Source: Nematopogon swammerdamellus (Eukaryota; Arthropoda; Insecta; Lepidoptera; Adelidae). From it: DNA of 64,000 nt. Below the pieces are notes generated by a model. It made no database searches. It was not told where the DNA came from and was given only the letters and a program-made list of their open reading frames with translations. The stretch spans positions 16,415,596-16,479,595 of the forward strand of contig OX336343.1 in assembly GCA_946902875.1 (NCBI GenBank), read 5' to 3'. Within the stretch, counting starts at the first letter, position 1. Every line of letters starts with the position of its first letter. Both the position numbers and the translations under genes were made by a program. This document shows, in pieces, positions 19,925 through 47,900 of the stretch.

Positions 19925-20995
19925 TTTCTCGACATTTGTCAACTTTTATTAACTTTTGTAAATTGTTTACAACTTTTGTCAGCTCTTGTCAACCATTGTA
20001 AATGTTTGTCAACTTTTCTCATCTTTTGCCAATTTCAGTCATCTTTTGTCAACTTTTATCGACTGTTGTCAAGTCTTGTCAATGTTTGTCAACCTTGGTA
20101 AACTTTTGTCAGCTTTCGTCAACATTTGTCAACTTTTGTCAACTTTCATCGACTGTTGTCAACTCTTGTCAATGTTTGTCAACCTTGGTCAACTTTTGTC
20201 AACTTTCGTCAACATTTGTCATCTTTTGTCATCATTTGTCAACTTTTATCGACTGTTGTCAACTCTTGTCAACCTTGGTCAACTTTTGTCAACTTTCGTC
20301 AACATTTGTCGACTTTTGTCATCTTTTGTCAACGTTTGTCAACTTTTGTCTATTTTTCTCGATTTTTGTGAAATTATAGCCACTTTCGTCATCTTTTATC
20401 AACTTTTCTCATCTTTTATCAACTTTTCTCATCTTTTGCCAACTTCTGTCACCTTTTGTCAACTTTTATCGACTGTTGTCAACTCTTGTCAAGTTTTGTA
20501 AACTTTTGAGAACTTTTATCAACTCTCGGTAACTTATGTCAACTCTTGTCAACTTTTGTCAACATTTGTCAACTTTTGTCAACTTTCGTCCACTTTTGTC
20601 AACTTTTGTCAACTTTTGTCAACTTTTGTCAACTTTTGTCAACTTTCGTCAACGTTTGTCTACTTTTATGGCTTTTGTCGACTTTTGTTAACTTATAGCC
20701 ACTTTCGTCATCTTTTGTCAATTTTTGCCAAGTTCTGTCACTTTTATGAACTTTTGTCAGCTTTCGTGAACTTTTGTCAACTCTTGTCAACGTTTGTCAA
20801 CTTTCGTCAACTATTGTTAATTAATGTCAACTAAGTATTGTCAACTTTTTTCAAATTTTGTAAACGTTTGTCAACTTATGTCAGCTGTTTGTCAACTTTC
20901 GTCAACTTTTCCCATCTTTTGTCCAGTTTGTCAACTTTCGTTAACTCTTGTCAACTTTAGTCAACTTATGTAAACTCTTGTCAACTTTTGTCAAA
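19925..20995 (+). repeat. Satellite array, unit TCAACTTTTG, forward arm
   Basis: About 107 imperfect copies of the 10-mer TCAACTTTTG. Common variants are GTCAACTTTCG, TCGACTGTTG, TCAACCTTGG and TCATCTTTTG. Since 10 is not a multiple of 3, all three frames translate to the same kind of repeat (LLSTFVNFCQ), so long open frames here are artefacts. Confidence 0.9.
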
Positions 20996-22915
20996 ACGAA
21001 AGCTAACAAAAGTTCATAAAAGTGACAAAAGTTGACAACAGTGGTTAAAATATGATAAAAGCCGACAAAAGCTGAGAGAAGTTTGCAAAAGTTGACAAAA
21101 GTTGACCAAGGTTGACAAACATTGACAAGAGTTGACAACAGTCGATAAAAGTTGACACAGGTCGATAAAAGTTGACAAAAGATGACGAAAGTTGACAAAA
21201 GTTGACCAAGGTTGACAAACATTGACAAGAGTGGACAACAGTCGATAAAAGTTGACAAAAGATGACAAAAGTTGACAAATATTGACGAAAGTTGACAAAA
21301 GTTGACCAAGGTTGACAAACATTGACAAGAGTTGACAACAGTCGATAAGAGTTGACAAAAGTTGACAAATATTGATAAAAGTTGACAAAAGTTGACAAAC
21401 ATTAACAAGAGTTGACAACAGTCGATAAAAGTTGACAAAAGGTGACAGAAGTGGGCAAAGATAAGAAAAGTTGACAAAAGTTGACCAGAGTTGACATAAG
21501 TTACCGAGAGTTGGCAAAAGTGCTCAAAAGTTTACAAACTTGACAAGAGTTGACAACAGTTGATAAAAGTTGACAAAATATGACAAAAGTTGACAAATGT
21601 TGACGAAAGTTGACAAAAGTTGACCAAGGTTGACAAACATTGACAAGAGTTGACAAAAGTCGATAAAAGTTGACAAAAGATGACAAAAGTTGACAAATAT
21701 TGACGAAAGTTGGCAAAAGTTGACCAAGGTTGACAAACATTGACAAGAGTTGACAACAGTCGATAAAAGTTGACAAAAGGTGACAGAAGTGGGCAAAGAT
21801 AAGAAAAGTTGACAAAAGTTGACAAGAGTTGACATAAGTTACCGAGAGTTGGCAAAAATTCTCAAAAGTTTACAAAACTTGACAAGAGTTGACAACAGTC
21901 GATAAAAGTTGACAAAAGGTGACAGAAGTGGGCAAAGATAAGAAAAGTTGACAAAAGTTGACCAGAGTTGACATAAGTTACCGAGAGTTGGCAAAAGTGC
22001 TCAAAAGTTTACAAACTTGACAAGAGTTGACAACAGTTGATAAAAGTTGACAAAATATGACAAAAGTTGACAAATGTTGACGAAAGTTGACAAAAGTTGA
22101 CCAAGGTTGACAAACATTGACAAGAGTTGACAAAAGTCGATAAAAGTTGACAAAAGATGACAAAAGTTGACAAATATTGACGAAAGTTGACAAAAGTTGA
22201 CCAAGGTTGACAAACATTGACAAGAGTTGACAACAGTCGATAAAAGTTGACAAAAGATGACAAAAGTTGACAAATATTGACGAAAGTTGGCAAAAGTTGA
22301 CCAAGGTTGACAAACATTGACAAGAGTTGACAACAGTCGATAAAAGTTGACAAAAGGTGACAGAAGTGGGCAAAGATAAGAAAAGTTGACAAAAGTTGAC
22401 AAGAGTTGACATAAGTTACCGAGAGTTGGCAAAAATTCTCAAAAGTTTACAAAACTTGACAACAGTCGATAAAAGTTGACAAAAGGTGACAGAAGTTGGC
22501 AAAAGATGAGAAAAGTTGACAATAGTTGACAAGAGTTGACATAAGTTACCGACAGTTGACAAAAGTTCTCAAAAGTTTACAAACTTGACAAGAGTTGACA
22601 ACAGTCGATAAAAGTTGACAAAAGGTGACAGAAGTTGGCAAAAGATAAGAAAAGTTGACAAAAGTTGACAAGAGTTGACATAAGTTACCGAGAGTTGGCA
22701 AAAGTTCTCAAAAGTTTACAAAACTTGACAAGAGTTGACAACAGTCGATGAAAGTTGACAAAAGGTGACAGAAGTTGGCAAAAGATGAGAAAAGTTGACA
22801 AGAGTTGACAACAGTCGATAAAAGTTGACAAAATGTGACAGAAGTTGGCAAAAGTTGACAAAAGTTGTCAACATTTGTCAAAAGTTAATATAAAGTGACA
22901 ACAGTCGAAAATCGT
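20996..22915 (-). repeat. Satellite array, unit CAAAAGTTGA, reverse arm with higher-order repeats
   Basis: About 190 copies of the same 10-mer in the opposite orientation. Higher-order structure is visible: a block around 21480-21900 (with GACATAAGTTACCGAGAG and GTGCTCAAAAGTTTAC) returns almost unchanged about 477 bp later at 21957-22470. Shorter versions follow to 22850. This arm is nearly twice as long as the forward arm. Confidence 0.9.
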
Positions 22916-26538: not shown

Positions 26539-26759
26539 TTAAGACCACTGAACTTAAAATTGCAAAAAAAAAAAAATATTTTAAGAATATATTCCTTCCG
26601 GCCTTCGGCGGTACGGAACCACTGATTGCCTCCGACACGATCTATTTAATGTCGTCGCTGTCAGATAATAATGTGCTACGGATCAGTAAGTAGGTGAGCT
26701 ATGCCGCTACGACGCCACTTTCAAACTTCAAAATTTTCTAAGTCCCGGGAATCGGGGGG

Positions 26760-27140
26760 CGTGGCCTAATTTGGGGTGTACGTAGGGCTTCGGAGTCAGG
26801 GTTCAGCTCCAGGGTGCCAGGTCAGGGTGCTGCGCCCCATCAATTTGGTGTGTACGTAGGCCTTCGGAGTCAGGGTTCAGACCTTCGGATTCAGGATTCA
26901 GGCCTTAGGATTCAGGATTCAGGGTTCCAGATTCAGGGTTCAGGTCCAGGGTGCTAGGTCAGGGTGCTGCGCCCCATCCATTTGAGGCGTACGTAGGCCT
27001 TCGGAGTCATGGTTCAGCTCCAGGGTGCTGCACCCCACCAGCATGGTTCCACATGCACCGAGGCTTCGCCCCTGCCCCCTACCCCGCCCCGCCCCTGCCA
27101 CACCCTTCGCCCCAGCCTTCACCCCTCCACAGTACCCCTG
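26760..27140. repeat. GC-rich iterated block (left arm)
   Basis: The phrases CTTCGGAGTCAGGGTTCAG, CCAGGGTGC, GGTCAGGGTGCTGCGCCCCA and GTACGTAGG are reused three or more times. They end in a C-rich segment (CCCCGCCCCGCCCCTGCCAC). The same C-rich module returns at 28850-28945 and, inverted, at 32075-32275. The mirror image in the right arm is 38340-38730. It is non-coding and compositionally unlike the rest of the arm. Confidence 0.8.
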
Positions 27141-27546
27141 CCGACCGAGCGCAGGTAAATAGAGGTAGATAAACTAAGAGTGGTGCGTATTGTCTACCTG
27201 ATAAGGGGTAGTTGATTCACCTCTATTGTCGGGAGGCAGGTTTAAACCTGTAGCAACCTGTAGGAACGACTGACTCCGCTTACGCATTGAATAGAAATAT
27301 AACATTAACAATTGTTCTGTGAAATGTATTCATACTCAGCATGACTAAGGCATCGTCAGTCAGGTAGGTTGGAGCCTAATGGTGTAGGAATGCAGACATG
27401 GCGCCGTCGCCGTCGGGCTTTGGCGGCGGGGAAGTTTGGCTGGTGCATTTAAAAATTCCGACACGCTCACTGTGACCGCAGTCGACAACGATGAACAGTC
27501 AGCCGCCAACATTACGCCGAGCTGCACGCCTGCGCCCACCGCTACA

Positions 27547-27930
27547 ATGTCGCTAACGACTATCCACGTGCACACCTCGGGGCCGAGGCACGAGCGCTAT
27601 TCGTCCGAGTCGGCACGTCTTCAAACATTCAACGATTAGCCACGCGCCCTCCGGCAGAAGCCTGAAGAAATGGTTAAGGCTGGGTTTTTCTACACTGGTT
27701 TTGGTGACAAAGTGGCGTGCTTTTACTGCGGAGGAACACTCAACCAGTGGCGACCGGAAAACACACCGTGGGAGGAGCACACGAGGCTAGACCGCTGCGC
27801 TTTCGTCTACATAATGAAGGGAGCTGACTTCGTCACAGTCAAAGCAAAAGGATTGGACGAGATCGACATTCCGAGCTATTCGCCATACTTGTATGCGCCA
27901 TCAGACGATGGAGCCTTTAACTTGAAATGA
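27547..27930 (+). pseudogene. BIR-domain (IAP-like) gene, left arm, with in-frame TAG
   Basis: From the first in-frame ATG the frame encodes a short Ser/Thr-rich leader, then a BIR domain: ARLQTFND, a TAG at 27637-27639 where BIR domains have Trp, then KPEEMVKAGFFYTGFGDKV, CFYCGGTLNQW, PWEEHTRLDRCAFV. The zinc ligands C-x2-C...H...C and the GFFYTG/GD/W core are present. BIR proteins block caspases or regulate cell division, and IAP genes are common in insect DNA viruses. No RING domain follows; the frame ends at 27930 with AATAAA at 27940. The same TAG occurs in the right-arm copy, so the break predates or was spread by the duplication. A first ATG downstream of the TAG (27670) would give only a partial BIR. 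Confidence 0.88.
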
Positions 27931-28355
27931 TTAATTTTCAATAAATATTTTTACATTTAAACAGTGAATACATTTATTTCAACCCACCCACACCCATAAA
28001 TGAAACAAAAGTTAGCAGAAATGTTTATTTATTTTCACAAATCTTAATACTAAAGTGTACATGATATATGTTTTAGAAAAGTCACTTAAACCCATTATTT
28101 ACATAAATGGGGCAACCTAAGTTTCGTCAGCAAATATTTATTTCTTGGTCAGGTCTATGATGGTTGTTTTAAAGATGATGATGATGGCGTGGTAGATAGG
28201 TTAGAAATCAGCTTGCTGTCGCGCTGGTTAATGGTGATATGTATGATGGCCCATTACCTCTGAGAAAAAATTGTATTGGATGTTGTCAGAATATTTTAAT
28301 TTTTCATGACATATTTTATTATTTAATTTACGTACAAAGTGGAAATCTTATACTC

Positions 28356-28772
28356 TTAATCTATTTGTATAACATTTTGCTGCGCATCTAAAATTTGCGT
28401 AACGATATTGGCTATAGCGGAGATTATCCTTCGCTCATATTGGTTTGGCTCTGGGGTCTGCTGCACAATGCCTAACGTTGGCGATTGATGCTGCTGAGTG
28501 ATCCAATCTGAAGACTGCAATGTGCCCACGTTTGATGTTGGATCTTGCTTGTGCGATGTCAGCGGTGATGGCGGCTGCTGTTGATGTGTAGGCGAATAGT
28601 ATGCAGATGAGTATCGCGGTGGAGATGTCGCTGGTAGAGGTGGCGATGGTGAATAATTCATCAGGGTATACGTAGGTGAGCCGTAGGTGGGTGAGTATCG
28701 CGTTGGATATATCGTTGGTGGAGATGTAGGTGGTGAATTAAGCAGCGGTGAGTCTTGCGCAAGCGAACCCAC
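28356..28772 (-). CDS. Pro/Ser/Tyr-rich ORF, unknown function, left arm
   Basis: About 139 codons without an ATG near the start (first candidate GTG at 28772; the frame is open a little further upstream to a TAA). The N-terminal two thirds is low-complexity, built on SPP, YSPT and PPRYSS repeats, followed by a Gln-rich section. The end is a more ordered IISAIANIVTQILDAQQNV amphipathic stretch. This composition resembles disordered viral structural or accessory proteins, but I do not recognise the family. It is convergent with the BIR gene. The right-arm copy (36715-37131) has the same length and protein. Conservation between arms says nothing about selection because the arms are recent copies. 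Confidence 0.5.
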   Translation of the reverse strand: MGSLAQDSPLLNSPPTSPPTIYPTRYSPTYGSPTYTLMNYSPSPPLPATSPPRYSSAYYSPTHQQQPPSPLTSHKQDPTSNVGTLQSSDWITQQHQSPTLGIVQQTPEPNQYERRIISAIANIVTQILDAQQNVIQID

Positions 28773-28849
28773 CCAACTTATGAGTGGTGGTGCGGAAATG
28801 TATTAGGACAGTGTTTTTCAAACTGTGGATAGCGAAGCCAGTGCTAGGT

Positions 28850-28945
28850 CAGGGTGCTGCGCCCCACCAGCGTGGTTCCACTGGCACCGAGGCTTCGCCC
28901 CTTCCCCCTACCCCGCCCCGCCCCTGCCACCCCCCCCCCCCCCCT
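28850..28945. repeat. C-rich module with C15 homopolymer
   Basis: Contains CAGGGTGCTGCGCCCCACCA, CCCCGCCCCGCCCCTGCC and a run of 15 C at 28930-28944. The mirror at 36541-36650 has 16 G, one of the few differences between the arms. Confidence 0.8.
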
Positions 28946-29103
28946 TTAGGGATGAACAATTAGAAATTGTGGTGTGAAGGGTGGTTGGTGAAAGCTGCAA
29001 GTTGAAATCAAACTTATTACAATGGCTCAAGGTACATTATTTATGTTTGATTCCTGCCTACGTGCCGGAGTACCTAGCGTGTTAATACTTGCTTACAGTG
29101 TGA

Positions 29104-29600
29104 CTCATTTAGGGATGAACAATTAGAAATTGTGAACTGGGGTTGACAAAAGAGCTCATTAGTGGTAGATACCAAGGGATCGCTCACAGGCAACGCAGAT
29201 TGAGACTTGTTGAAATATACCAATTGTTGTGGAGATATTTTTAAATGTAAAATTTTCTTAGTGCAACTATTGTGAAAGATAACTGATGTCTGGGGTTGAA
29301 CAAAAGAGCTCATTACTGGAAGGTATCAGCGGGTCGCTCACAGGTGACGCAGCGCAGGTTGAGACTTGCAGAAACATGAAAATGTTTGGTGAAATTATTT
29401 AAAAGTAATATCGCGCTGTGATAAAGTGTAGGTAAGTCGACCCTTCCCACAACAGCCATTATTAAAGATAATAGACGTCTTTGGGGGTTGAACAAAAGAG
29501 CTCTGTACTGTAAAAACCAACGGGTCCATCTCGTTCGACGCAGATTGAGACTTGTAGAAACATGAAAATGTTTGACAAATTTTTAAAGTAAAATATTTTT
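29104..29600. repeat. Three imperfect ~178-bp tandem repeats (left arm)
   Basis: Units start near 29104, 29280 and 29459. Each has GGGGTTGAACAAAAGAGCTC, a GGATCGCTCACAGG-like segment, AGATTGAGACTTG and an AT-rich end (ATGAAAATGTTTG). On the minus strand parts read DPLVST and FVQPQ in each unit, so they may be decayed coding repeats or regulatory iterations. The mirror is at 35885-36380. Confidence 0.7.
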
Positions 29601-29796
29601 TAGTATATACTTTTTCCACATCATCATGTGAGGGGGTGGGGGTTATTTATCTATATAGCTCATGTTTATAAGACTGAGCGCACAATTTTAGTAAAACAGT
29701 TCGATCGCAGCAGCACGCCGACTTGTATCTCTACACACCACGGTGAGCTGATTTCTAAATATCGACCACACCAGCATCATCTTCACACCAACCATC

Positions 29797-30102
29797 ATGG
29801 ACCTAACCAAGATCAACTAAGCGGGCAAGCGAGCCTTCCTGGAGACGCGGAAACTCGCCATCTTGGAGATTGGAAAACTCTACCGAGTGACCGACTTGCG
29901 CAAAGTTGCAACCAAATACGGAGATCGCATTGTAGCTGACATCGATGAGACTTTCTGCGTCTTCCTACCCAAGCGGATGATCGACGCCTTCAACAAGGAT
30001 GGGAAGATGTTCGAAGATATGGTTGAAGCTAGCAGAGAAAACATGCTTGGGCTGAAATACCTTGGTGGGACGTATAATGCTATCGAGTTCGATAGTATGT
30101 AA
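29797..30102 (+). pseudogene. Small TKYG/FLPKR-motif protein with early TAA, left arm
   Basis: An ATG at 29797 opens a 101-codon frame with TAA at codon 8 (29818-29820). The rest is uninterrupted: GKRAFLETRKLAILEIGKLY, then VATKYGDRIVADIDETFCVF and FLPKRM, ending NMLGLKYLGGTYNAIEFDSM. The pattern G-x-x-Y-x-V...V-x-T-K-Y-G...F-x-V-F-L-P-K-R recalls small OB-fold-like single-strand-binding proteins of insect mobile or viral DNA, but that is a guess from shape. An internal ATG is lacking near the break; translation from ATT/ATG-less sequence is unlikely, so the gene is probably dead. The right-arm copy (35384-35689) has the same TAA. Confidence 0.65.
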
Positions 30103-30559
30103 GAAGAGGGCGTGGAAATGTATGTGGAATACCAACGTTTTAGCTGTACGATTTTACAGAAATAAAATTTTTTGTCTAATATATGTACTGTGTATTAAGG
30201 AAAATAACCTTATGTAATAAAGCTTATAATTGAACAATATTTTTTAATTTTCATACCCAACCGCACTAGATAATACCAAGGTATATAGTTATTAGTTTCT
30301 TAGTAAGAAACTCTAACAATTTTGTGAATCATCAAAATGTATTTCACTAAGGTTGGAAACAAAAGATTAAAAATTGTGCGAATTCTTTTCATAGCTTCAG
30401 CCCACAACTTTACCTGCGCACATGTAGGTACTTCTGGCATGAGGGGGCTGCTTCTAGATTAGGAAAGGTGGGTTGACGCTTGAGTTTAAATAATATTATT
30501 TCGAGGCATCATTTAAAATTGAAACGTCGTGCAAGCAAGTTCTCAAAGAAATCAACATC

Positions 30560-30709
30560 ATGGGAGTGACCGCTAAATGGCGAATTAACAGCACCGCGCA
30601 AGTGCAGGGGGCCATCGTGCGGCACAACAGTGGAAAATTCAATGATGGCGAGCTGTATCGCTGTATTCAGCTAACCTATTCTTCAGGTGAGATATATTTG
30701 TCATTATAA
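30560..30709 (+). CDS. 49-codon ORF of unknown function, possibly a 5' exon, left arm
   Basis: ATG in ATCATGG context. The predicted product starts MGVTAKWRINSTAQVQGAIV and has a HNSGKFNDGELYRC stretch. A consensus splice donor (TTCAG/GTGAGA) lies at 30686 inside the frame, so it may be a first exon. No family is recognised. The mirror copy is 34776-34925. The third, shorter copy in the centre is cut off just inside this ORF (about 33350-33420). Confidence 0.35.
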   Translation: MGVTAKWRINSTAQVQGAIVRHNSGKFNDGELYRCIQLTYSSGEIYLSL

Positions 30710-30797
30710 TATATATTTTATACATACCACTTTTTTTACAGAATCACAATGTTTACTCGATGTGAGCCTATTATACCTTATCACTATTTGATCATTG

Positions 30798-30970
30798 TCA
30801 GCCTCGGTAGCTCAGTGGTGTGTCAACAGCTGTAAAGCAACCCTGGGTGCGGATAGTGCTGAGATGGGTGATTGATCACTCATCCGTTGGAGGCTGACCG
30901 TGGTTCGGATCCTACGTTAAACTGTAGGATAAACGTATAACTGTAGGTTGTAGTTGATATAGTCAACCGA
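30798..30970 (+). repeat. tRNA-derived SINE inside the palindrome arm
   Basis: A box GGTAGCTCAGTGGTGTG and B box GGTTCGGATCC (30902-30912) are clear. Mirror copies lie in the right arm (about 34515-34690) and in the central segment (about 33060-33250). The insertion therefore predates the duplications. Confidence 0.8.
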
Positions 30971-32060
30971 GCCAGTTTCCCGACCAAGTGCGAATCCAAC
31001 TCGCACACCGAGGGTTCCGTATCACCATATCATGGTCAGCACCACTCACGCCATTAGTTATAATGCTTCATACACTACTATTTTGGCACCTATATTTATT
31101 ATTAAGACCTATACTCAGGGCATTGAGGTGTACCAATGGGTTAAAAAAAAAGCTGAAATCGGCACTTTTGTTAGCACAAAAGGGCTATTGACGATTTAAA
31201 AAAAATTTATGTTTTGTCGTTTTATGTATCTCTTTTCTAATTTTATTTATTGTTGCGTTGTATTTAGTTATATTATTTTATTGTGTTGTTACTTTTTGTA
31301 TTATTCTGTTTTTGCTATCCTTTGTGTTATTATAAGGTATTATTTTAAAGTTGTTATTTATAGTGTTAGTCATTTGTTTGTTTATTGATAGAAAAAGGTT
31401 CTGTGCTTATGTTAGGTTAGCACCATTGTTACATTATCATATCTACCTAAGGGTAGACCGGGCAGGATCTACCTGAGATGGGGCCTGGCGGCGAAGCTTT
31501 ACAAGCGCAATTGTTCAGCCGGAAGCCGGAGCCGGTGGGGTAGCACGTTAAATTTATTAACATTTTATTAGGTAATAATTACTCCAATTAACTACTCTAT
31601 TAAACTGATATGAAACTTAGGCGGTAATATTTCTAAAAATTATTTTGATTGCTCCAATTAAAACAAGAATTACATTTATTGAAGTTTTATTAGGTACCTA
31701 TTAATTATCCCCATTAACCTGATAAGACCCTTAGCCTACAGAAAACGTTCAACGAGCCAACATTTCCGAGAGTTGGTGGATGACTCAAGATTCGGGAAGC
31801 ATGATACCGGATTCGGGAATCATGAATTGGAGCCCAGGAGGTGGCGAGGGTAGCGGAGCGGGGGTAGCGGGGGTGGGGTGGCACGCTAAATTAATAATTT
31901 TTTTTATTAGGTATTAATTACCCCAATTAACTACTCTATTAAACTGATATGAAGCTTAGGCGGTAACATTTTTAAAATTATTTTAATTACTCCAATTAAA
32001 ACGAGAATTACATTTATTGACGTTTTATTAGGTATTAATTACCCCAATTAACTGACAAAT
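30971..32060. other. Inner part of left arm, non-coding
   Basis: This holds a lepidopteran repeat (CGAGGGTTCCGTATCACC at 31008; relatives at 39310, 56310 and 56890). Two tandem versions of an AT-rich module follow (TTATTAGGTA, CTCTATTAAACTGATATGAA, GGCGGTAA) at about 31555-31740 and 31900-32060. Open frames here (30988-31191) are repeat-derived, not genes. Confidence 0.6.
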
Positions 32061-33425
32061 TGATGGGGCGCAGCACCTTGACCTGGCACCCTGGAGCTGA
32101 ACCCTGACTCCGATCGGGCGGCAGGGATACTGCGGAGGGGTGAAGGCTGGGGCGGAGGGGGGGGGGGGGGGTGGCAGGGGCGGGACGGGGTAGGGGGAAG
32201 GGGGCGAAGCCTCGTTGCCAGTGGAACCACGCTGGTGGGGCGCAGCACCCTGACCTAGCACCCTGGACCTGAACCCTGCGGAAATGTTGGCTCGTTGAAC
32301 GTTTTCTGTAGGCTAAGGGTCTTATCAGGTTAATAGGGATAATTAATAGGTACCTAATAAAACTTCAATAAATGTAATTCTTGTTTTAAGTGGCGCAATC
32401 AAAATAATTTTTAGAAATATTACCGCCTAAGTTTCATATCAGTTTAATAGAGTAGGTAATTGGAGTAATTATTACCTAATAAAATGTTAATAAATTTAAC
32501 GTGCTACCCCACCGGCTCCGGCTTCCGGCTGAACAATTGCGCTTGTAAAGCTTCGCCGCCAGGCCCCATCTCAGGTAGATCCTGCCCGGTCTACCCTTAG
32601 GTAGATATGATAAAATAAAAATGGTGCTAACCTAACATAAGCACAGTACCTTTTTCTATCAATAAACAAACAAATGACTAACACTATAAATAACAACTTT
32701 AAAATAATACCTTATAATAACACAAAGGATAGCAAAAACAGAATAATACATAAAGTAACAACACAATAAAATAATATAACTAAATACAACGCAGCAATAA
32801 ATAAAATTTGAAAAGAGATACATAAAACGACAAAACATTAATTTTTTTAAACCGTCAATGACCCTTTTGTGCTAACAAGAGTGCCGATTTCAGATTTTTT
32901 TTTTTAACACATTGGTACACCTCATTGCCCTGAGTATAGGTCTTAATAATAAATATAGGTGCCAAAATAGTAGTGTATGAAGCATTATAACTAATGGCGT
33001 GAGTGGTGCTGACCAAGATATGGTGATACGGAACCCTCGGTGTGCGAGTTGGACTCGCACTTGGTCGGGAAACTGGCTCGGTTGACTATATCAACTACAA
33101 CCTACAGTTATACGTTTATCCTACAGTTTAATGTAGGATCCGAACCACGGTCAGCCTCCAACGGATGAGTGATCAATCACCCATCTCAGCACTATCCGCA
33201 CCCACGGTTGCTTTGCAGCTGTTGGCACACCACTGAGCTACCGAGGCTGACAATGATCAAATAGTGATAAGGTATAATGGGTTCACATCGAGTAAACATT
33301 GTGATTCTGTAAAAAAAGTGGTGTGTATAAAATATATATTATAATGACAAATATATCTCACCTGAAGAATAGGTTAGCTGAATACAGCGATACAGCTCTT
33401 GTGCCGCACGATGGACCCCTGCACT
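32061..33425. repeat. Asymmetric centre of the palindrome with a third, inverted partial copy
   Basis: This is the only part without a mirror partner. 32061-32280 is the GC-rich module (with a G run at 32157). 32281-33420 is a diverged inverted copy of 30640-31760, so that segment exists three times in the element. It differs from the arms at scattered sites (for example ATAAAATAAAAATGG where the arms have ATAATGTAACAATGG). It could form a local hairpin with the left arm or pair in direct orientation with the right arm. Confidence 0.85.
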
Positions 33426-34775
33426 ATTTGTCAGTTAATTGGGGTAATTAATACCTAATAAAACGTCAATAAATGTAATTCTCGTTTTAATTGGAGTAAT
33501 TAAAATAATTTTAAAAATGTTACCGCCTAAGCTTCATATCAGTTTAATAGAGTAGTTAATTGGGGTAATTAATACCTAATAAAAAAAATATTAATTTAGC
33601 GTGCCACCCCACCCCCGCTACCCCCGCTCCGCTACCCTCGCCACCTCCTGGGCTCCAATTCATGATTCCCGAATCCGGTATCATGCTTCCCGAATCTTGA
33701 GTCATCCACCAACTCTCGGAAATGTTGGCTCGTTGAACGTTTTCTGTAGGCTAAGGGTCTTATCAGGTTAATGGGGATAATTAATAGGTACCTAATAAAA
33801 CTTCAATAAATGTAATTCTTGTTTTAATTGGAGCAATCAAAATAATTTTTAGAAATATTACCGCCTAAGTTTCATATCAGTTTAATAGAGTAGTTAATTG
33901 GAGTAATTATTACCTAATAAAATGTTAATAAATTTAACGTGCTACCCCACCGGCTCCGGCTTCCGGCTGAACAATTGCGCTTGTAAAGCTTCGCCGCCAG
34001 GCCCCATCTCAGGTAGATCCTGCCCGGTCTACCCTTAGGTAGATATGATAATGTAACAATGGTGCTAACCTAACATAAGCACAGAACCTTTTTCTATCAA
34101 TAAACAAACAAATGACTAACACTATAAATAACAACTTTAAAATAATACCTTATAATAACACAAAGGATAGCAAAAACAGAATAATACAAAAAGTAACAAC
34201 ACAATAAAATAATATAACTAAATACAACGCAACAATAAATAAAATTAGAAAAGAGATACATAAAACGACAAAACATAAATTTTTTTTAAATCGTCAATAG
34301 CCCTTTTGTGCTAACAAAAGTGCCGATTTCAGCTTTTTTTTTAACCCATTGGTACACCTCAATGCCCTGAGTATAGGTCTTAATAATAAATATAGGTGCC
34401 AAAATAGTAGTGTATGAAGCATTATAACTAATGGCGTGAGTGGTGCTGACCATGATATGGTGATACGGAACCCTCGGTGTGCGAGTTGGATTCGCACTTG
34501 GTCGGGAAACTGGCTCGGTTGACTATATCAACTACAACCTACAGTTATACGTTTATCCTACAGTTTAACGTAGGATCCGAACCACGGTCAGCCTCCAACG
34601 GATGAGTGATCAATCACCCATCTCAGCACTATCCGCACCCAGGGTTGCTTTACAGCTGTTGACACACCACTGAGCTACCGAGGCTGACAATGATCAAATA
34701 GTGATAAGGTATAATAGGCTCACATCGAGTAAACATTGTGATTCTGTAAAAAAAGTGGTATGTATAAAATATATA

Positions 34776-34925
34776 TTATAATGACAAATATATCTCACCT
34801 GAAGAATAGGTTAGCTGAATACAGCGATACAGCTCGCCATCATTGAATTTTCCACTGTTGTGCCGCACGATGGCCCCCTGCACTTGCGCGGTGCTGTTAA
34901 TTCGCCATTTAGCGGTCACTCCCAT
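34776..34925 (-). CDS. 49-codon ORF, right-arm copy
   Basis: Mirror of 30560-30709, same frame, same internal donor-like site. Function unknown. Confidence 0.35.
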   Translation of the reverse strand: MGVTAKWRINSTAQVQGAIVRHNSGKFNDGELYRCIQLTYSSGEIYLSL

Positions 34926-35383
34926 GATGTTGATTTCTTTGAGAACTTGCTTGCACGACGTTTCAATTTTAAATGATGCCTCGAAATAATATTATTTAAA
35001 CTCAAGCGTCAACCCACCTTTCCTAATCTAGAAGCAGCCCCCTCATGCCAGAAGTACCTACATGTGCGCAGGTAAAGTTGTGGGCTGAAGCTATGAAAAG
35101 AATTCGCACAATTTTTAATCTTTTGTTTCCAACCTTAGTGAAATACATTTTGATGATTCACAAAATTGTTAGAGTTTCTTACTAAGAAACTAATAACTAT
35201 ATACCTTGGTATTATCTAGTGCGGTTGGGTATGAAAATTAAAAAATATTGTTCAATTATAAGCTTTATTACATAAGGTTATTTTCCTTAATACACAGTAC
35301 ATATATTAGACAAAAAAAATTTATTTCTGTAAAATCGTACAGCTAAAACGTTGGTATTCCACATACATTTCCACGCCCTCTTC

Positions 35384-35689
35384 TTACATACTATCGAACT
35401 CGATAGCATTATACGTCCCACCAAGGTATTTCAGCCCAAGCATGTTTTCTCTGCTAGCTTCAACCATATCTTCGAACATCTTCCCATCCTTGTTGAAGGC
35501 GTCGATCATCCGCTTGGGTAGGAAGACGCAGAAAGTCTCATCGATGTCAGCTACAATGCGATCTCCGTATTTGGTTGCAACTTTGCGCAAGTCGGTCACT
35601 CGGTAGAGTTTTCCAATCTCCAAGATGGCGAGTTTCCGCGTCTCCAGGAAGGCTCGCTTGCCCGCTTAGTTGATCTTGGTTAGGTCCAT
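35384..35689 (-). pseudogene. Small TKYG/FLPKR-motif protein with early TAA, right arm
   Basis: Mirror of 29797-30102. The premature stop (TAA, forward TTA at 35666-35668) is identical. The encoded protein after it is the same over its whole length. Confidence 0.65.
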
Positions 35690-35884
35690 GATGGTTGGTG
35701 TGAAGATGATGCTGGTGTGGTCGATATTTAGAAATCAGCTCACCGTGGTGTGTAGAGATACAAGTCGGCGTGCTGCTGCGATCGAACTGTTTTACTAAAA
35801 TTGTGCGCTCAGTCTTATAAACATGAGCTATATAGATAAATAACCCCCACCCCCTCACATGATGATGTGGAAAAAGTATATACT

Positions 35885-36380
35885 AAAAAATATTTTACTT
35901 TAAAAATTTGTCAAACATTTTCATGTTTCTACAAGTCTCAATCTGCGTCGAACGAGATGGACCCGTTGGTTTTTACAGTACAGAGCTCTTTTGTTCAACC
36001 CCCAAAGACGTCTATTATCTTTAATAATGGCTGTTGTGGGAAGGGTCGACTTACCTACACTTTATCACAGCGCGATATTACTTTTAAATAATTTCACCAA
36101 ACATTTTCATGTTTCTGCAAGTCTCAACCTGCGCTGCGTCACCTGTGAGCGACCCGCTGATACCTTCCAGTAATGAGCTCTTTTGTTCAACCCCAGACAT
36201 CAGTTATCTTTCACAATAGTTGCACTAAGAAAATTTTACCTTTAAAAATATCTCCACAACAATTGGTATATTTCAACAAGTCTCAATCTGCGTTGCCTGT
36301 GAGCGATCCCTTGGTATCTACCACTAATGAGCTCTTTTGTCAACCCCAGTTCACAATTTCTAATTGTTCATCCCTAAATG
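35885..36380. repeat. Three ~178-bp tandem repeats, right arm
   Basis: Mirror of 29104-29600. One base differs from the left arm near 36239 (ACCTTT versus ACATTT on the same strand). Confidence 0.7.
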
Positions 36381-36714
36381 AGTCACACTGTAAGCAAGTA
36401 TTAACACGCTAGGTACTCCGGCACGTAGGCAGGAATCAAACATAAATAATGTACCTTGAGCCATTGTAATAAGTTTGATTTCAACTTGCAGCTTTCACCA
36501 ACCACCCTTCACACCACAATTTCTAATTGTTCATCCCTAAAGGGGGGGGGGGGGGGGTGGCAGGGGCGGGGCGGGGTAGGGGGAAGGGGCGAAGCCTCGG
36601 TGCCAGTGGAACCACGCTGGTGGGGCGCAGCACCCTGACCTAGCACTGGCTTCGCTATCCACAGTTTGAAAAACACTGTCCTAATACATTTCCGCACCAC
36701 CACTCATAAGTTGG

Positions 36715-37131
36715 GTGGGTTCGCTTGCGCAAGACTCACCGCTGCTTAATTCACCACCTACATCTCCACCAACGATATATCCAACGCGATACTCACCCAC
36801 CTACGGCTCACCTACGTATACCCTGATGAATTATTCACCATCGCCACCTCTACCAGCGACATCTCCACCGCGATACTCATCTGCATACTATTCGCCTACA
36901 CATCAACAGCAGCCGCCATCACCGCTGACATCGCACAAGCAAGATCCAACATCAAACGTGGGCACATTGCAGTCTTCAGATTGGATCACTCAGCAGCATC
37001 AATCGCCAACGTTAGGCATTGTGCAGCAGACCCCAGAGCCAAACCAATATGAGCGAAGGATAATCTCCGCTATAGCCAATATCGTTACGCAAATTTTAGA
37101 TGCGCAGCAAAATGTTATACAAATAGATTAA
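36715..37131 (+). CDS. Pro/Ser/Tyr-rich ORF, right arm
   Basis: Mirror of 28356-28772, predicted to give the same 138-residue protein. It also lacks a good ATG. Confidence 0.5.
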   Translation: MGSLAQDSPLLNSPPTSPPTIYPTRYSPTYGSPTYTLMNYSPSPPLPATSPPRYSSAYYSPTHQQQPPSPLTSHKQDPTSNVGTLQSSDWITQQHQSPTLGIVQQTPEPNQYERRIISAIANIVTQILDAQQNVIQID

Positions 37132-37556
37132 GAGTATAAGATTTCCACTTTGTACGTAAATTAAATAATAAAATATGTCATGAAAAATTAAAATATTCTG
37201 ACAACATCCAATACAATTTTTTCTCAGAGGTAATGGGCCATCATACATATCACCATTAACCAGCGCGACAGCAAGCTGATTTCTAACCTATCTACCACGC
37301 CATCATCATCATCTTTAAAACAACCATCATAGACCTGACCAAGAAATAAATATTTGCTGACGAAACTTAGGTTGCCCCATTTATGTAAATAATGGGTTTA
37401 AGTGACTTTTCTAAAACATATATCATGTACACTTTAGTATTAAGATTTGTGAAAATAAATAAACATTTCTGCTAACTTTTGTTTCATTTATGGGTGTGGG
37501 TGGGTTGAAATAAATGTATTCACTGTTTAAATGTAAAAATATTTATTGAAAATTAA

Positions 37557-37940
37557 TCATTTCAAGTTAAAGGCTCCATCGTCTGATGGCGCATACAAGT
37601 ATGGCGAATAGCTCGGAATGTCGATCTCGTCCAATCCTTTTGCTTTGACTGTGACGAAGTCAGCTCCCTTCATTATGTAGACGAAAGCGCAGCGGTCTAG
37701 CCTCGTGTGCTCCTCCCACGGTGTGTTTTCCGGTCGCCACTGGTTGAGTGTTCCTCCGCAGTAAAAGCACGCCACTTTGTCACCAAAACCAGTGTAGAAA
37801 AACCCAGCCTTAACCATTTCTTCAGGCTTCTGCCGGAGGGCGCGTGGCTAATCGTTGAATGTTTGAAGACGTGCCGACTCGGACGAATAGCGCTCGTGCC
37901 TCGGCCCCGAGGTGTGCACGTGGATAGTCGTTAGCGACAT
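37557..37940 (-). pseudogene. BIR-domain (IAP-like) gene, right arm, with in-frame TAG
   Basis: Mirror of 27547-27930. The TAG at the conserved BIR Trp is present here too (forward CTA at 37848-37850). All zinc-ligand Cys and His codons are conserved. The two copies are convergent toward the outer ends of the element. Confidence 0.88.
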
Positions 37941-38804
37941 TGTAGCGGTGGGCGCAGGCGTGCAGCTCGGCGTAATGTTGGCGGCTGACTGTTCATCGTT
38001 GTCGACTGCGGTCACAGTGAGCGTGTCGGAATTTTTAAATGCACCAGCCAAACTTCCCCGCCGCCAAAGCCCGACGGCGACGGCGCCATGTCTGCATTCC
38101 TACACCATTAGGCTCCAACCTACCTGACTGACGATGCCTTAGTCATGCTGAGTATGAATACATTTCACAGAACAATTGTTAATGTTATATTTCTATTCAA
38201 TGCGTAAGCGGAGTCAGTCGTTCCTACAGGTTGCTACAGGTTTAAACCTGCCTCCCGACAATAGAGGTGAATCAACTACCCCTTATCAGGTAGACAATAC
38301 GCACCACTCTTAGTTTATCTACCTCTATTTACCTGCGCTCGGTCGGCAGGGGTACTGTGGAGGGGTGAAGGCTGGGGCGAAGGGTGTGGCAGGGGCGGGG
38401 CGGGGTAGGGGGCAGGGGCGAAGCCTCGGTGCATGTGGAACCATGCTGGTGGGGTGCAGCACCCTGGAGCTGAACCATGACTCCGAAGGCCTACGTACGC
38501 CTCAAATGGATGGGGCGCAGCACCCTGACCTAGCACCCTGGACCTGAACCCTGAATCTGGAACCCTGAATCCTGAATCCTAAGGCCTGAATCCTGAATCC
38601 GAAGGTCTGAACCCTGACTCCGAAGGCCTACGTACACACCAAATTGATGGGGCGCAGCACCCTGACCTGGCACCCTGGAGCTGAACCCTGACTCCGAAGC
38701 CCTACGTACACCCCAAATTAGGCCACGCCCCCCGATTCCCGGGACTTAGAAAATTTTGAAGTTTGAAAGTGGCGTCGTAGCGGCATAGCTCACCTACTTC
38801 AGTA

Positions 38805-43548: not shown

Positions 43549-43865
43549 ATGTAAAGTAAGACAAGCCCTACTTTAAACTAATTCATACTTTGCCGCGCGG
43601 CTACTCGTCAGGTATAATATTATATTCTTTAGACACGGTTACTGGCTGATGGGAAAGTAGATCAATGCCGAACGCGACTTTAAAACACATGAAAGATAAA
43701 TGACATATATATTGGTAATCTGTCAATGAACCTAAAAATAGAATTTACCGTGAGAAAGGAGTGATTGTGAGAAATAAACTTTAAATGTCGTTTCTTTGCT
43801 TACAGAGAAACTCAGATTAGTTTATTTGGGAAAAGATCATTCCTATAAAGAACATCACACATTAT
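43549..43865 (+). repeat. 5' LTR (317 bp)
   Basis: Starts ATGTAAAGTAAGACAAG, ends ACATCACACATTAT. It includes AATAAA at 43773-43778 and, five bases later, AAATGTCGTTT (43783-43793), the complement of the bases just beyond the LTR. It lacks a 43-nt block present in the 3' LTR. Confidence 0.9.
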
Positions 43866-43866
43866 A

Positions 43867-43877
43867 AAACGACATTT
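43867..43877 (+). promoter_or_regulatory. Putative self-primer binding site
   Basis: The bases AAACGACATTT, one base beyond the LTR end, are exactly complementary to AAATGTCGTTT inside the LTR (43783-43793 and 48348-48358). No TGG needed for pairing with a tRNA CCA end is found here. In Tf1 of fission yeast the first 11 nt of the transcript pair with the PBS and prime reverse transcription; the layout here has the same length. Confidence 0.65.
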
Positions 43878-43889
43878 TTAGTCAAAAAC

Positions 43890-44753
43890 ATGGAAAAACT
43901 ACGATTCACATTTATCGTAAAAGAGGCATCAGACAAGAAAAGCAATGTTATATGCTTAACCTCAATTGAAACGCCACAAGCGAAGACGTACAAAATACCA
44001 ACGGAATACGAAAGCGGGGGACACCACACTGAATTACTAACGACCGCAGCTTATAAGAGGATAGCAAAAACAATAAAGACACGCCACCAAACAAGAAGTG
44101 TTTGGATCACACTAACGAAAGAACTGAGTGAATGCTACTTAGATGAAGATGAGAACCCAATATTTGGAGATTACTATCTAGAAGAAACTACAGAAGAACC
44201 TCAAACCACGCAAACACCACAGGCTACAAGTGTAAATACCCAACCCAATAATAAACATAACAATTTACGAAAACTAACAGAAAAATTTGTCATTGAAAAA
44301 TTCACAGGCAAAAATGCTAACGGAATTCAGTGGCTAGGCACTTTCGAGCACGAATGCAGTCGCCTAGACCTAGAAGAAGACTCAGAGAAGATCGAAGTGT
44401 TGAGACTATTTTTAGAAGGCTCCGCCACAGACTGGTACAACTCGATGCTTATAAGGAACACTCTATCATCGGAATGGCAAATCTGGAAGGAAAACTTCTG
44501 TCAAACATATTCAAACAAAGGTTGGTCGATGATCAGGTATGCGATCCTATACAAATACATAAATGGCTCTTTACTAGACTATGCGCTGAAGAAGGAGAGA
44601 ATTTTATTAGAAATGAACAAAACAATCGATAATAGCACTTTGATCAATCTCATCGCAGTGGGGTTACCGGAGTTTGTAGCAGATAGGATCAATAGAGAAA
44701 AATTGAACTCACCCAAAGATCTTTTTCTGAATTGGGAAGCCTGGAACACTTGA
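43890..44753 (+). CDS. gag: Gag, capsid part (frame 1)
   Basis: 287 codons starting ATG 24 nt after the 5' LTR. The N-terminal 90 residues are a basic region of unknown fold, followed by a Thr/Gln/Pro-rich linker. From about residue 135 comes a capsid-like domain: FVIEKFTGKNANGIQWLGTF, LRLFLEGSATDWYNSML, W-x-x-W-x-x-x-F and SLLDYALKKERILLE, the usual Ty3/gypsy retrotransposon-gag motifs. The frame ends NWEAWNT after the run CTTTTTC (about 44721-44727). The homologous reading continues in the -1 frame as ELGSLEHLMKRK. Either a base was lost from the T run or ribosomes slip there. Confidence 0.88.
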   Translation: MEKLRFTFIVKEASDKKSNVICLTSIETPQAKTYKIPTEYESGGHHTELLTTAAYKRIAKTIKTRHQTRSVWITLTKELSECYLDEDENPIFGDYYLEETTEEPQTTQTPQATSVNTQPNNKHNNLRKLTEKFVIEKFTGKNANGIQWLGTFEHECSRLDLEEDSEKIEVLRLFLEGSATDWYNSMLIRNTLSSEWQIWKENFCQTYSNKGWSMIRYAILYKYINGSLLDYALKKERILLEMNKTIDNSTLINLIAVGLPEFVADRINREKLNSPKDLFLNWEAWNT

Positions 44754-44983
44754 TGAAAAGAAAATACATAAACAAAAATATTAAGGAAAACCCGGAGAAA
44801 AAACAAGAGAAACACCCATGCAAAATCTGTGAAAAGAAAGGTAAGATGAACCGTTACCATCCCGAAGCTACATGTTGGTTTAAAGCAAATCAAAAGGCCG
44901 AGGAAAACAAAAACCAAATCAAATTCGTAAACAACACTGAAATAGAATCCGAACTAGTTGAAACAAACCAAAAAAACTTATAA
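44732..44983 (+). CDS. Gag, nucleocapsid part (frame -1)
   Basis: Continues Gag in the -1 frame. It is a Lys-rich stretch with the zinc-knuckle-like HPCKIC, then RYHPEATCWF (C-x2-C-x9-H-x4-C), and ends NQKNL stop. It has no start codon of its own in good context, so it must be reached by frameshifting or marks a 1-nt defect. Its last codons contain the slippery heptamer for Pol. Confidence 0.8.
   Translation: MGSLEHLMKRKYINKNIKENPEKKQEKHPCKICEKKGKMNRYHPEATCWFKANQKAEENKNQIKFVNNTEIESELVETNQKNL
44971..44977 (+). promoter_or_regulatory. -1 frameshift site A AAA AAC (Gag to Pol)
   Basis: In the gag frame the codons are CAA AAA AAC TTA TAA. The heptamer A AAA AAC is a canonical simultaneous-slippage site, and the gag stop follows one codon later. 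After a -1 slip reading continues CTT ATA ACT CCA straight into protease without a stop. A downstream pseudoknot was not evaluated. Confidence 0.85.
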
Positions 44984-47900
44984 CTCCACCATTAATCAAA
45001 CTCAAATTACTACTGCAGGACACAGTAGAAATAATCGGAATATATGACTCAGGCGCAAACGTGTCATTGATAAATTCTAAAATATTGAGGTTGAAAAATA
45101 AAAATATGGATAACGCGAGAGGCGCACATTTATCAACGATTAATGGTGTAAAGGAGACAAAAGGAATGATAAACATAAAAATAAAGATATTCAACATAGA
45201 GAAAGTCACGAATGTTTTCGTGATAGATAAAGATCATTTTCAATATGATTTTCTAATCGGATTGGACATAATAAAAGAATTCCAACTTATCCAAGACGAA
45301 AACTTAGAGATTAGACAGAAAGAAAATAGAAACATTTTGGAGAGAGATAGAGATATAAAAGAACAATATATCATAGACAGATACTCTATAAATTTCAATG
45401 AACATGTAAATGCATCAGACTTTGAAATATCCATAAATCACTTAGATTACCAAAGGAAAACTGAGATAAATAGATTGATAGAAAAATATACTACGACTTT
45501 TGCCAAAGATAAATACGATGTAGGTACAGTAAAAGACTATGAAGCACGTATTGATCTACTAATCGACAGATACTGCAGTAAAAGACCATATAAATGCAAT
45601 ATGGAAGATAAGAAAGAAATAGAGGAACAAGTTGCCAAGCTACTGGAAAAGAACCTCATAGAAGAGTCCTATAGCCCATTTGCGGCGCCAGTAACCCTGG
45701 CATATAAAAGAGAAGAAAACAGGAAAACAAGATTATGCATTGATTTTAGAGATCTAAATAAAATCGTCATACCACAGTCACAGCCTTTTCCATTGATAGG
45801 AGACTTGATGGTAAAAACAAGAAATTGCAAATATTTCTCGGCACTGGATATAAACTCGGCATTCTGGGCAATCCCATTAAGAATAGAGGATAGAAAAAAA
45901 ACGGCATTCGTGGCACAAGAAGGCCACTTCCAATGGACCTGTCTACCGTTTGGGTTGAAAACTTCTCCAGCAATTTTTCAGAGAATTTTAAGCAATATCA
46001 TCAGGAAGTATAAACTATCGGATTTCGCAGTGAACTACATAGACGACATATTAATATTTTCGAAATCGTTCAAGGAACACATCGAACACTTAACAGCATT
46101 ACTAGAAGCAATACGAAAAGAAGGTTTCAGATTAAAATTTAGCAAATGCAAATTTGCAGAAAACTCAGTGAAATATCTAGGTCACATGATAAGCAATAAC
46201 TCAATACGCCCGATAAAAGATAACTTGGTTTCAATCAGGAACTTTCCAACACCAAGAACACAAAAAAATGTTAGACAGTTCTTGGGAAAGATAAACTTTT
46301 ACAACAAATATATACCGAACATAGCTATAACCCTAGATCCACTACATAATTTATTAAGAAAGGGGCAGCAATTCCTTTGGACAAAGGAATGCCAAGACTC
46401 ATTTGAAAAGATGAAACAATTACTGTGCTCCCAGCCTGTGTTAGAAATATACGACCCAGAACTACCAACGTATATCTATACGGATGCAAGCCTACAGGGC
46501 ATAGGAGCTGTAATGAAACAAAAACAGGCAAACGACGAAGAAAAACCAGTAGGATATTTTTCAAAAAAATTAAATAACAGCCAAAAGAAGAAAAAAGCGA
46601 TATACTTAGAATGCCTAGCCATAAAAGAGGCAATACAATACTGGCAATACTGGCTTATGGGAAAAAGATTCATAGTTTTTTCAGACCACAAACCATTAGA
46701 GAAACTCAATATAAAATCAAGGACAGACGAGGAACTGGGTGATTTAACTTACTATTTGTCGCAATACGACTTCACAGTAAAATACTCCCCAGGAAAAGAT
46801 AACTTAGAAGCTGATTGCCTAAGCAGAAACCCAGTTCTAGAAGCTCATGAAAACAAAGACGAACAATTAAAGCTTGTAAATGTAGTAAAACTTGATAGGA
46901 TCATTGAAGACCAACAAAACAATCAAAATTTACAAGACATAAAAATCAAAACAATACTAAGAAACAATGTATACTATAAAAAAATTAAAACCAAAGAAAA
47001 AATTATCCTATCAGAAGACTTCAGCATAGAACTGATTAAACAAATACATAAAGAATATTGTCACATAGGAGTAAGACAATTAGAAAACAAAATAAACCCA
47101 TTCTATACAGCGAACAACCTAACACAGAATATAAAAAATATATGCAAGAATTGTGCAATATGCATAAAGAACAAAACAAGAGGACAAGGAAAATTTGGAC
47201 TAATGTCACATTTAGGACCGGCGAAAGAACCGTTCGAAATAATGTCACTTGACACAATAGGAGGATTTGGCGGCACCAGATCAACAAAAAGATATCTGCA
47301 CCTCCTAGTTGACCACTTCACAAGATACGCATTCATTCTAACATCGAAAACACAAAATGCAACCGATTTTATAAAATTAGTCGAACAGGCAACAGACATC
47401 AATACAGTTGGCATGATCCTATCGGACCAGTACCCAGGAATCAATTCAAAAGAGTTCAAAAAGTTTCTAGAAGAAAAACAGATCCCCTTAGTGTTCACCG
47501 CAGTAAACGCACCATTTTCCAATGGTCTGAATGAGAGGCTAAATCAGACCATAGTCAACAAAATAAGATGCAAGATTAACGAAAAAATAAAAAAATCAGC
47601 ATGGACAACAATAGCACAGGAATGTACACAAAAATATAACGAAACCGAACACACGGTTACCGGCTTCACACCAATATACCTGTTACATGGAACAAATATC
47701 TCAACCTTACCAAGAGAACTGAAGGGAAAACAAAATATTAGCAACTTATCACAAGATAGAGATTTAGCCCTGAAGAATACAAAAAAATCACACGACTATA
47801 ACAAAGCGCTATATGATAAAAACAGAAAAGAATGTATATTCAACAATGGAGACCTGGTATACGTAGAAAATGGAAACCGACTAAATAGAAAAAAATTGGA

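What the first reader, a model, noticed from the sequence alone, without database searches (positions are those of the whole stretch)
26689..38798. 12.1 kb palindromic DNA-virus/Polinton-like element inserted as a unit: a fossil snapback genome?
Seen: two ~5.37 kb arms that are near-identical reverse complements, terminal AG...CT, and an exact 6-bp direct repeat TCAGTA outside both ends. The TSD shows that the palindrome integrated as one molecule rather than arising by later rearrangement. Established: Polintons/Mavericks make 6-bp TSDs and have AG-type tips, and they replicate as linear protein-primed DNA. Inference: one end of such an element was copied head to head, as in snapback or defective genomes of linear DNA viruses, and the product still integrated because both ends carry a good TIR. 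Such an element would bring two BIR genes and no polymerase or integrase, a parasite of the autonomous form.
Basis: partly seen in the sequence, partly recalled or inferred. Interest (0 to 1): 0.88.

Follow-up and report, generated by a model that had tools for sequence, protein, structure and literature searches.

The report
Palindromic parasite family of Polinton viruses
The 12.1 kb palindrome is one of at least 43 mirror-image copies scattered through this animal genome, a stripped-down relative of virus-like Polinton elements that probably spreads with the help of full-length Polintons and whose two halves tend to evolve together.

Summary
It is not a lone fossil. By gene positions the host assembly holds at least 43 such head-to-head elements; 0 of 43 contain a scored capsid, integrase or polymerase hit. 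Matching 6-bp duplications: 9 of 11 copies with this tip, 4 of 4 tested (of 5) with a second tip. The second tip also flanks 15 other elements, 13 of which hold capsid, integrase and polymerase: autonomous Polintons, mostly 14.2 kb. One of these matches 1.4 kb of the arm at 97.7%. Two elements with inverted polymerase ends and one hybrid also exist, with 6-bp duplications. Some derived bases sit in both arms together, while a third copy trapped in the loop is 3% diverged. Best reading: a non-autonomous Polinton family, founded by a snapback-type event, that moves as a palindrome with enzymes supplied in trans.

The parts
26683..26688 (.). left 6-bp target site duplication TCAGTA
38799..38804 (.). 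right 6-bp target site duplication TCAGTA
26689..32060 (+). left arm of the palindrome (5372 bp)
33426..38798 (-). right arm of the palindrome (5373 bp), reverse complement of the left
26689..26733 (+). class-a tip (first 45 bp, AGTAGGTGAGC...); class-b autonomous elements differ here, beginning AGTAGGGTATG
26734..28143 (+). arm positions 46-1455, 97.7% identical to the BIR end of an autonomous Polinton (C20:3943756-3958000)
27388..27927 (+). BIR (IAP-type) gene, interrupted by an in-frame stop; uninterrupted 180-195 aa frames exist in autonomous elements
28359..28802 (-). 148-aa ORF matching the C-terminal part of a second BIR-type protein (253 aa elsewhere)
29821..30099 (+). 93-aa part of a conserved ~101-aa protein of unknown function, frame interrupted near its start in this subfamily
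32061..33425 (.). loop (non-palindromic centre, 1365 bp), entirely made of pieces that match the arm
32061..32271 (.). GC-rich pieces of the outer arm in inverted orientation, also present in the one class-c palindrome centre that was read
32272..33398 (-). third copy of 30650-31774, 97% identical to the arm
35387..35665 (-). right-arm copy of the 93-aa ORF
   Evidence: C11:16450982-16451260
36685..37128 (+). right-arm copy of the 148-aa ORF
   Evidence: C11:16452280-16452723
37560..37847 (-). right-arm copy of the BIR-domain ORF
   Evidence: C11:16453155-16453442

Best explanation
This is a non-autonomous, palindromic Polinton/Maverick: a multicopy family whose unit of movement is the whole mirror-image molecule. 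Proposed working: autonomous Polintons supply pPolB (with terminal protein) and rve integrase in trans. The palindrome carries the same replication/integration tip at both ends, so it is copied as a linear molecule and inserted with a 6-bp duplication. The founding palindrome probably arose as a snapback: a 3' end folded back during strand-displacement synthesis and copied its own strand to the tip, as in defective genomes of linear DNA viruses. Later, one arm is at times recopied from the other, which keeps the arms alike. Shown: family, tips, duplications, absence of scored enzyme genes, autonomous partners, a shared loop piece, changes present in both arms. Inferred: trans-mobilisation, the snapback step, and arm-to-arm copying during replication rather than in the chromosome.
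For: 43 loci with two facing BIR/101-aa arms (hand count, list; 47 convergent pairs of the 101-aa gene among 114 places). 6-bp duplications in 9 of 11 class-a copies, 4 of 4 tested class-b palindromes, 2 of 2 polymerase-end elements, 1 of 1 hybrid. The same 22-bp tip on autonomous elements and on 5 palindromes. Autonomous elements with DJR capsid, rve integrase, PLA2-like protein and PolB. Class-a copies amplified at 99.3-100% identity although their BIR and 93-aa frames are interrupted. One class-c palindrome shares the left loop junction. The loop is wholly element-derived. Derived bases occur in both arms, including 7 private to one element (6 of them checked against classes b and c). The third copy is 3% diverged from the arms in the window and in the ten other copies compared. 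Within-element arm distances are smaller than random pairings: 36 of 20000 as low.
Against: No replication intermediate, transcript or movement is shown. The parent of the whole arm was not found: no asymmetric element with class-a tips, and only arm 46-1455 matches the class-b autonomous element read. Three of 11 class-a copies have arms differing by 11, 12 and 15 substitutions, more than the mean between different elements (8.9), and one class-b palindrome has 17 mismatches in 2743 between its arms, so copying is not perfect in each cycle. C21:16175760 has 12 one-arm changes against 7 private two-arm changes. Two class-a copies lack a matching duplication. The polymerase-end elements are palindromes by tip and gene positions only; their centres were not read. 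Most of the 43 were judged by gene positions, not by reading both arms.
Confidence: 0.66

Rival explanations
1. Inverted-repeat growth in the chromosome, as proposed for Galileo: short Polinton TIRs were lengthened by ectopic recombination and gene conversion among copies until they met near the middle; the result then moved as a long-TIR element.
For: Two copies carry arms of two haplotypes (C19:6712003, C3:23048390) and two copies without matching duplications suggest exchange among copies. The Galileo paper proposes this route and mentions inverted-repeat expansion in Polintons (PMC3573991, passages). A study of Polinton-like viruses of protists allowed TIRs of 100 bp to 8 kb (PMC12220804, passages), so long TIRs may be known there.
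Against: By gene positions no graded series of TIR lengths was seen: apart from the C22 hybrid, partial copies and tandem forms, elements are head-to-head or asymmetric. Class a and one class-c element share a loop piece and left junction, which looks like one founding fold-back.
Confidence: 0.2
2. The founding palindrome formed in the chromosome from two inverted neighbouring insertions by deletion of the DNA between them, and was mobile afterwards because both outer tips were intact.
For: Many near-identical copies in both orientations; nested and tandem arrangements such as C12:12541073-12559533 and C1:2958550-2971230.
Against: Head-to-head forms exist for both the BIR and the polymerase end, which a replication route explains more simply.
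Confidence: 0.08
3. Assembly artefact: inverted duplication of a single arm.
For: The C14 and C2:5416752 copies hold runs of N, so the assembler struggled at some copies; two copies lack matching duplications, which could be misjoins.
Against: 43 loci in different places; exact ends at the tips with matching, different 6-bp duplications in most copies tested; arms differing at a few bases; an asymmetric loop; one hybrid with polymerase in one arm only.
Confidence: 0.03

Closest known systems
Polinton/Maverick elements (adintovirus-like), autonomous
   Same: 6-bp target duplications, AGT-type tips, pPolB/integrase/DJR capsid partners in the same assembly; 6-bp duplications and AGT/AG-repeat end motifs are reported for vertebrate Mavericks (PMC8097293, passages)
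   Different: the palindrome lacks scored polymerase, integrase and capsid genes, has 5.4-kb inverted repeats, and two copies of each small ORF
Snapback (self-complementary) defective genomes of AAV
   Same: one end of a linear DNA genome duplicated head to head, with left-end and right-end versions, dependent on helper functions (PMC8235507, abstract and passages)
   Different: parvovirus hairpin replication, not protein-primed; particles, not an amplified integrated family; the founding snapback is not observed here
Galileo / Foldback long-TIR transposons
   Same: long inverted repeats, recombination among copies, chimeric copies without matching duplications (PMC3573991, passages)
   Different: Galileo belongs to the P-element superfamily with 7-bp duplications (same passages); here tips, 6-bp duplications and partners are Polinton-type

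Membership tests
Polinton/Maverick (as a non-autonomous member) | 6-bp target site duplication | tested here: met
   window copy; 9 of 11 class-a including the window, 4 of 4 tested class-b palindromes, 2 of 2 polymerase-end elements, 1 of 1 hybrid, 6 of 6 tested autonomous
Polinton/Maverick (as a non-autonomous member) | tips shared with an autonomous Polinton in the same genome | tested here: inconclusive
   met for class b: the 22-bp tip flanks autonomous elements and 5 palindromes. For the window's own class-a tip only AGTAGG and everything from position 46 on is shared with class b; no autonomous class-a copy was found
Polinton/Maverick (as an autonomous element) | own pPolB, rve integrase, DJR capsid | tested here: not met
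   0 of 43 palindromes hold a scored hit (searches score only their best candidates); present in the partners
[quoted passage not shown]
   integrase with a chromodomain match below the Pfam cut-off in the autonomous partner; no OTU hit in Pfam for the PolB
Snapback defective genome of a linear DNA virus | head-to-head arms with the same tip at both ends | tested here: met
Snapback defective genome of a linear DNA virus | arises by 3'-end fold-back during replication and is helper-dependent | not testable with these tools
   anatomy only
Foldback/Galileo | 7-bp duplications and a P-superfamily transposase partner | tested here: not met
   6-bp duplications and Polinton-type partners; a P-type transposase was not searched for

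The most novel reading that the evidence does not exclude
The class-a lineage survives only as head-to-head forms: BIR-end palindromes (12.1-13.0 kb), polymerase-end elements (15.0 kb) and a hybrid (16.8 kb) share one tip type, with no asymmetric parent seen. It may be a split, mutually complementing selfish system that replicates by a rolling-hairpin-like mode, re-making one arm from the other, with genome-length dimers kept near the size of the autonomous virus (14.2 kb).
Probability: 0.12. Interest if true: 0.9.

Novelty: new variant of a known kind. Interest (0 to 1): 0.73.

Why it matters
Polintons are thought to replicate as linear, virus-like DNA; I know of no direct observation in animals (recalled). 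A large, recently amplified family of palindromes, with both genome ends represented in head-to-head form and arms that tend to evolve together, is the footprint expected if Polinton DNA replicates by strand displacement with fold-back and feeds defective, helper-dependent genomes. It offers a testable system for defective genomes that are inherited in a germline and could hold the autonomous virus in check.

Tried and rejected
Naming the 93/101-aa protein: no Pfam family, no database homologue (2 candidates, none at E 0.001), PDB best E 0.08, and a single-sequence model of mean pLDDT 42, too poor to use. My working label 'SSB-like' in notes and scripts has no support and is dropped.

A first distance matrix had inflated rows, from a run of N in one locus and from misaligned stretches in another, and took a right-arm window shifted by 194 bases; it was replaced.

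The match of duplication letters between C21:297384 (right) and C19:6712003 (left) was examined as a reciprocal exchange, but the orientation does not fit. C19:6680108/C19:6712003 and C21:297384/C3:11326084 do fit, so exchange or misjoin between copies remains open.

Dating in years was not attempted.
Full report
THE OBSERVATION. Arms 26689-32060 and 33426-38798 are reverse complements with 2 mismatches and 3 one-base gaps. TCAGTA sits directly outside both tips (26683-26688, 38799-38804). The centre (32061-33425) is not symmetric: it holds a third copy (32272-33398, 97%) of 30650-31774, and 211 bp of GC-rich pieces that also occur inverted in the outer arm. All 1365 bases of the centre match some part of the arm.

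A FAMILY, NOT A FOSSIL. The window lies in a 699-Mb assembly of 39 contigs; the species is not given and I did not determine it. A 301-bp end probe hits outward-facing pairs of ends 12.1-13.0 kb apart (40 of 240 candidates scored). A 19-bp tip pattern with up to 2 mismatches gives 33 places (control pattern: 4). Combining positions of the BIR domain, this ORF, polymerase, capsid and tips gives 43 loci with the core BIR> ORF> <ORF <BIR (my hand count from the output; list). Ten other copies with the window's tip ('class a') were read. Aligned pieces of their arms are 99.3-100% identical to the window's; 18 of the 22 class-a arms are about 390 bp longer, by a local duplication near arm position 2257, while both window arms and one arm each of C4:19845554 and C3:23048390 are short. 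Nine of 11 class-a copies including the window have a perfect 6-bp duplication, each different; C21:297384 and C19:6712003 do not.

THE AUTONOMOUS PARTNERS. A DNA_pol_B_2 search gave 72 hits. One asymmetric element, C20:3943756-3958000 (14,245 bp, duplication ACTGAC), carries: a BIR gene of 180 aa; a 410-aa double-jelly-roll capsid protein (PF21738, E 1e-114); a 185-aa ORF that I take to be a penton (position and recall, no Pfam hit); an rve integrase (PF00665, 4e-13) with a chromodomain match below cut-off; a PLA2-like protein (PF08398, 2e-12); an ORF resembling an adenain protease (recalled, no Pfam hit); a 1275-aa PolB frame; and an ATPase fragment with only weak matches. Its tip (AGTAGGGTATG..., 'class b') pairs up at 15 non-palindromic elements, of which 13 hold scored integrase, capsid and polymerase; eight are 14.19-14.26 kb long. 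All 6 tested have 6-bp duplications. Integrase at 98-100% occurs in 28 full-length copies. The window arm matches this element from arm position 46 to 1455 at 97.7%, then stops.

PALINDROMES WITH THE AUTONOMOUS TIP. Five head-to-head elements carry the class-b tip at both ends: C3:26023526, C18:460308, C18:10605581, C21:8271655, C15:15175262. The four tested have 6-bp duplications. None of the 43 contains a scored integrase (131 hits), capsid (103) or polymerase (37) match. Those searches scored only their best candidates (130 of 1264, 102 of 179, 37 of 399), so diverged remnants could be missed. Twenty-five of the 43 have no class-a or class-b tip in my lists; I lump those as class c, and their tips were not read.

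POLYMERASE-END ELEMENTS AND A HYBRID. C20:11166845-11181893 (15,049 bp) has the exact class-a tip at both ends; C4:3003298-3018281 (14,984 bp) has it with one mismatch. Each has an inward-facing 1258-aa PolB frame at both ends, 71% identical to the class-b polymerase; one C20 frame has a stop. Duplications are CAACCG and AATTTC. Their centres were not read, so their symmetry rests on tip and gene positions. C22:20965559-20982375 (16,817 bp, duplication GTAAAT) has polymerase on one side only, between the tip and arm position 46; the 148-aa and 93-aa ORFs then face their mirror copies, though a left BIR hit is missing from the scored list. So both genome ends are found in head-to-head form. C14:15688488 starts like C22 and runs into N.

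WHERE THE ARM COMES FROM. The 148-aa minus-strand ORF (28359-28802) matches at 95-97% the end of 253-aa BIR-type frames, one of them near PolB, integrase and capsid at C3:11.07-11.09 Mb, where an 83% relative of the 93-aa ORF also lies. The arm is thus a mosaic of Polinton gene blocks, and no single parent was found.

ARMS TEND TO EVOLVE TOGETHER. One class-c element (C6) shares with class a the left loop junction and the 211-bp piece; its right junction lies within about 10 bp of the class-a one but is joined to another point of the arm. I read this as one ancestral palindrome with later loop changes. Yet, of 2878 sites compared, 3 separate all class-a arms used (six, from four elements) from the class-c or c-like arms used (five); class b (one or two arms) agrees with class c at all three, and the third copy at two of them (the other lies outside it). 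In all 22 class-a arms, one of these changes is in every arm; a second is absent from both arms of C21:16175760 and present in the other 20; the third, a stop in the 93-aa frame, is in 21 of 22, missing from one arm of that element. C21:16175760 differs from all other class-a arms at 8 sites in both arms: one is the ancestral state, 7 are private, 6 of these checked against classes b and c; 12 sites differ in one arm only. Within-element arm distances sum to 60 against a mean of 95.6 for random pairings; 36 of 20000 pairings are as low. Against this, three elements have arms differing at 11, 12 and 15 substitutions (mean between elements 8.9); two of them carry arms of two haplotypes, pointing to exchange between elements. 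A class-b palindrome has 17 mismatches in 2743 between its arms. The permutation does not correct for relatedness of copies.

MECHANISM. Best supported: helper-dependent movement as a linear palindrome, with the arms at times recopied from each other, and a snapback origin. Class-a copies amplified although their BIR and 93-aa frames are interrupted, which argues that the unit does not live by these proteins. The class-a lengths (12.1-13.0 kb) lie near the 14.2 kb of the autonomous form; a packaging limit is possible (inference).

LITERATURE. Nine paper searches listed no title or abstract start that describes a palindromic Polinton. This is weak evidence of novelty: at most 15 papers per search were listed (15 of 44 for Polinton plus palindrome), few were opened, and the library is open-access only. 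PMC8097293 (passages) gives 6-bp duplications and AGT/AG end motifs for Mavericks, and a 'jumping-back' role of the end repeats. PMC8235507 (abstract and passages) describes left- and right-end snapback genomes of AAV. PMC3573991 (passages) proposes inverted-repeat growth by recombination for Galileo and mentions inverted-repeat expansion in Polintons, with three references that I have not seen. PMC12220804 (passages) filtered Polinton-like viruses for TIRs of 100 bp-8 kb and has no occurrence of 'palindrom'. PMC11071296 (passages) defines adintoviruses. PMC4028283, PMC2836005, PMC6431247 and PMC2871265 were seen in passages, which show nothing on palindromic Polintons.

VERDICT. Real, Polinton-derived, multicopy and recently active: a palindromic kind of non-autonomous Polinton that I have not found described. 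The snapback origin is likely but unproven.

Noticed in passing
window 19921-22905: Two long arrays of the same 10-bp minisatellite unit in opposite orientation (AACTTTTGTC-type, then its complement), 11 bp apart: an inverted tandem-repeat array.
   Followed up: no
window 43549-48283: Retrotransposon-like element with 213-bp 100% identical direct repeats at both ends and a 1006-aa open pol-type frame (45061-48081): probably a recent LTR insertion (class judged by eye, not searched).
   Followed up: no
C12:12541073-12559533 and C1:2958550-2971230: Head-to-tail tandem copies of the palindrome arm (5776-bp spacing) beside inverted arms: concatemer-like forms.
   Followed up: partly
C19:6680108/C19:6712003 and C21:297384/C3:11326084: Duplication letters missing at one copy turn up at another (GAGGTT; AAGGTA and its complement), as after exchange between copies or an assembly misjoin at near-identical palindromes.
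   Followed up: partly
C2:16967574-16993528: Two head-to-head elements side by side, about 15.1 kb apart, perhaps a local duplication.
   Followed up: no
L053:2209-5982 and L039:745-4233: The PolB proteins hold an embedded Endonuclease VII-like domain (PF02945, E 2e-5 and 6e-6).
   Followed up: no
genome: Further Polinton groups in the same assembly (capsid mostly 44-48%, integrase about 50% identical), with many copies, most with open frames.
   Followed up: no
C15:11727724-11745047 and C9:23373400-23392494: Apparently older, partly broken head-to-head elements that keep longer second-BIR frames (up to 253-272 aa), possibly an earlier stage of the palindrome family.
   Followed up: no
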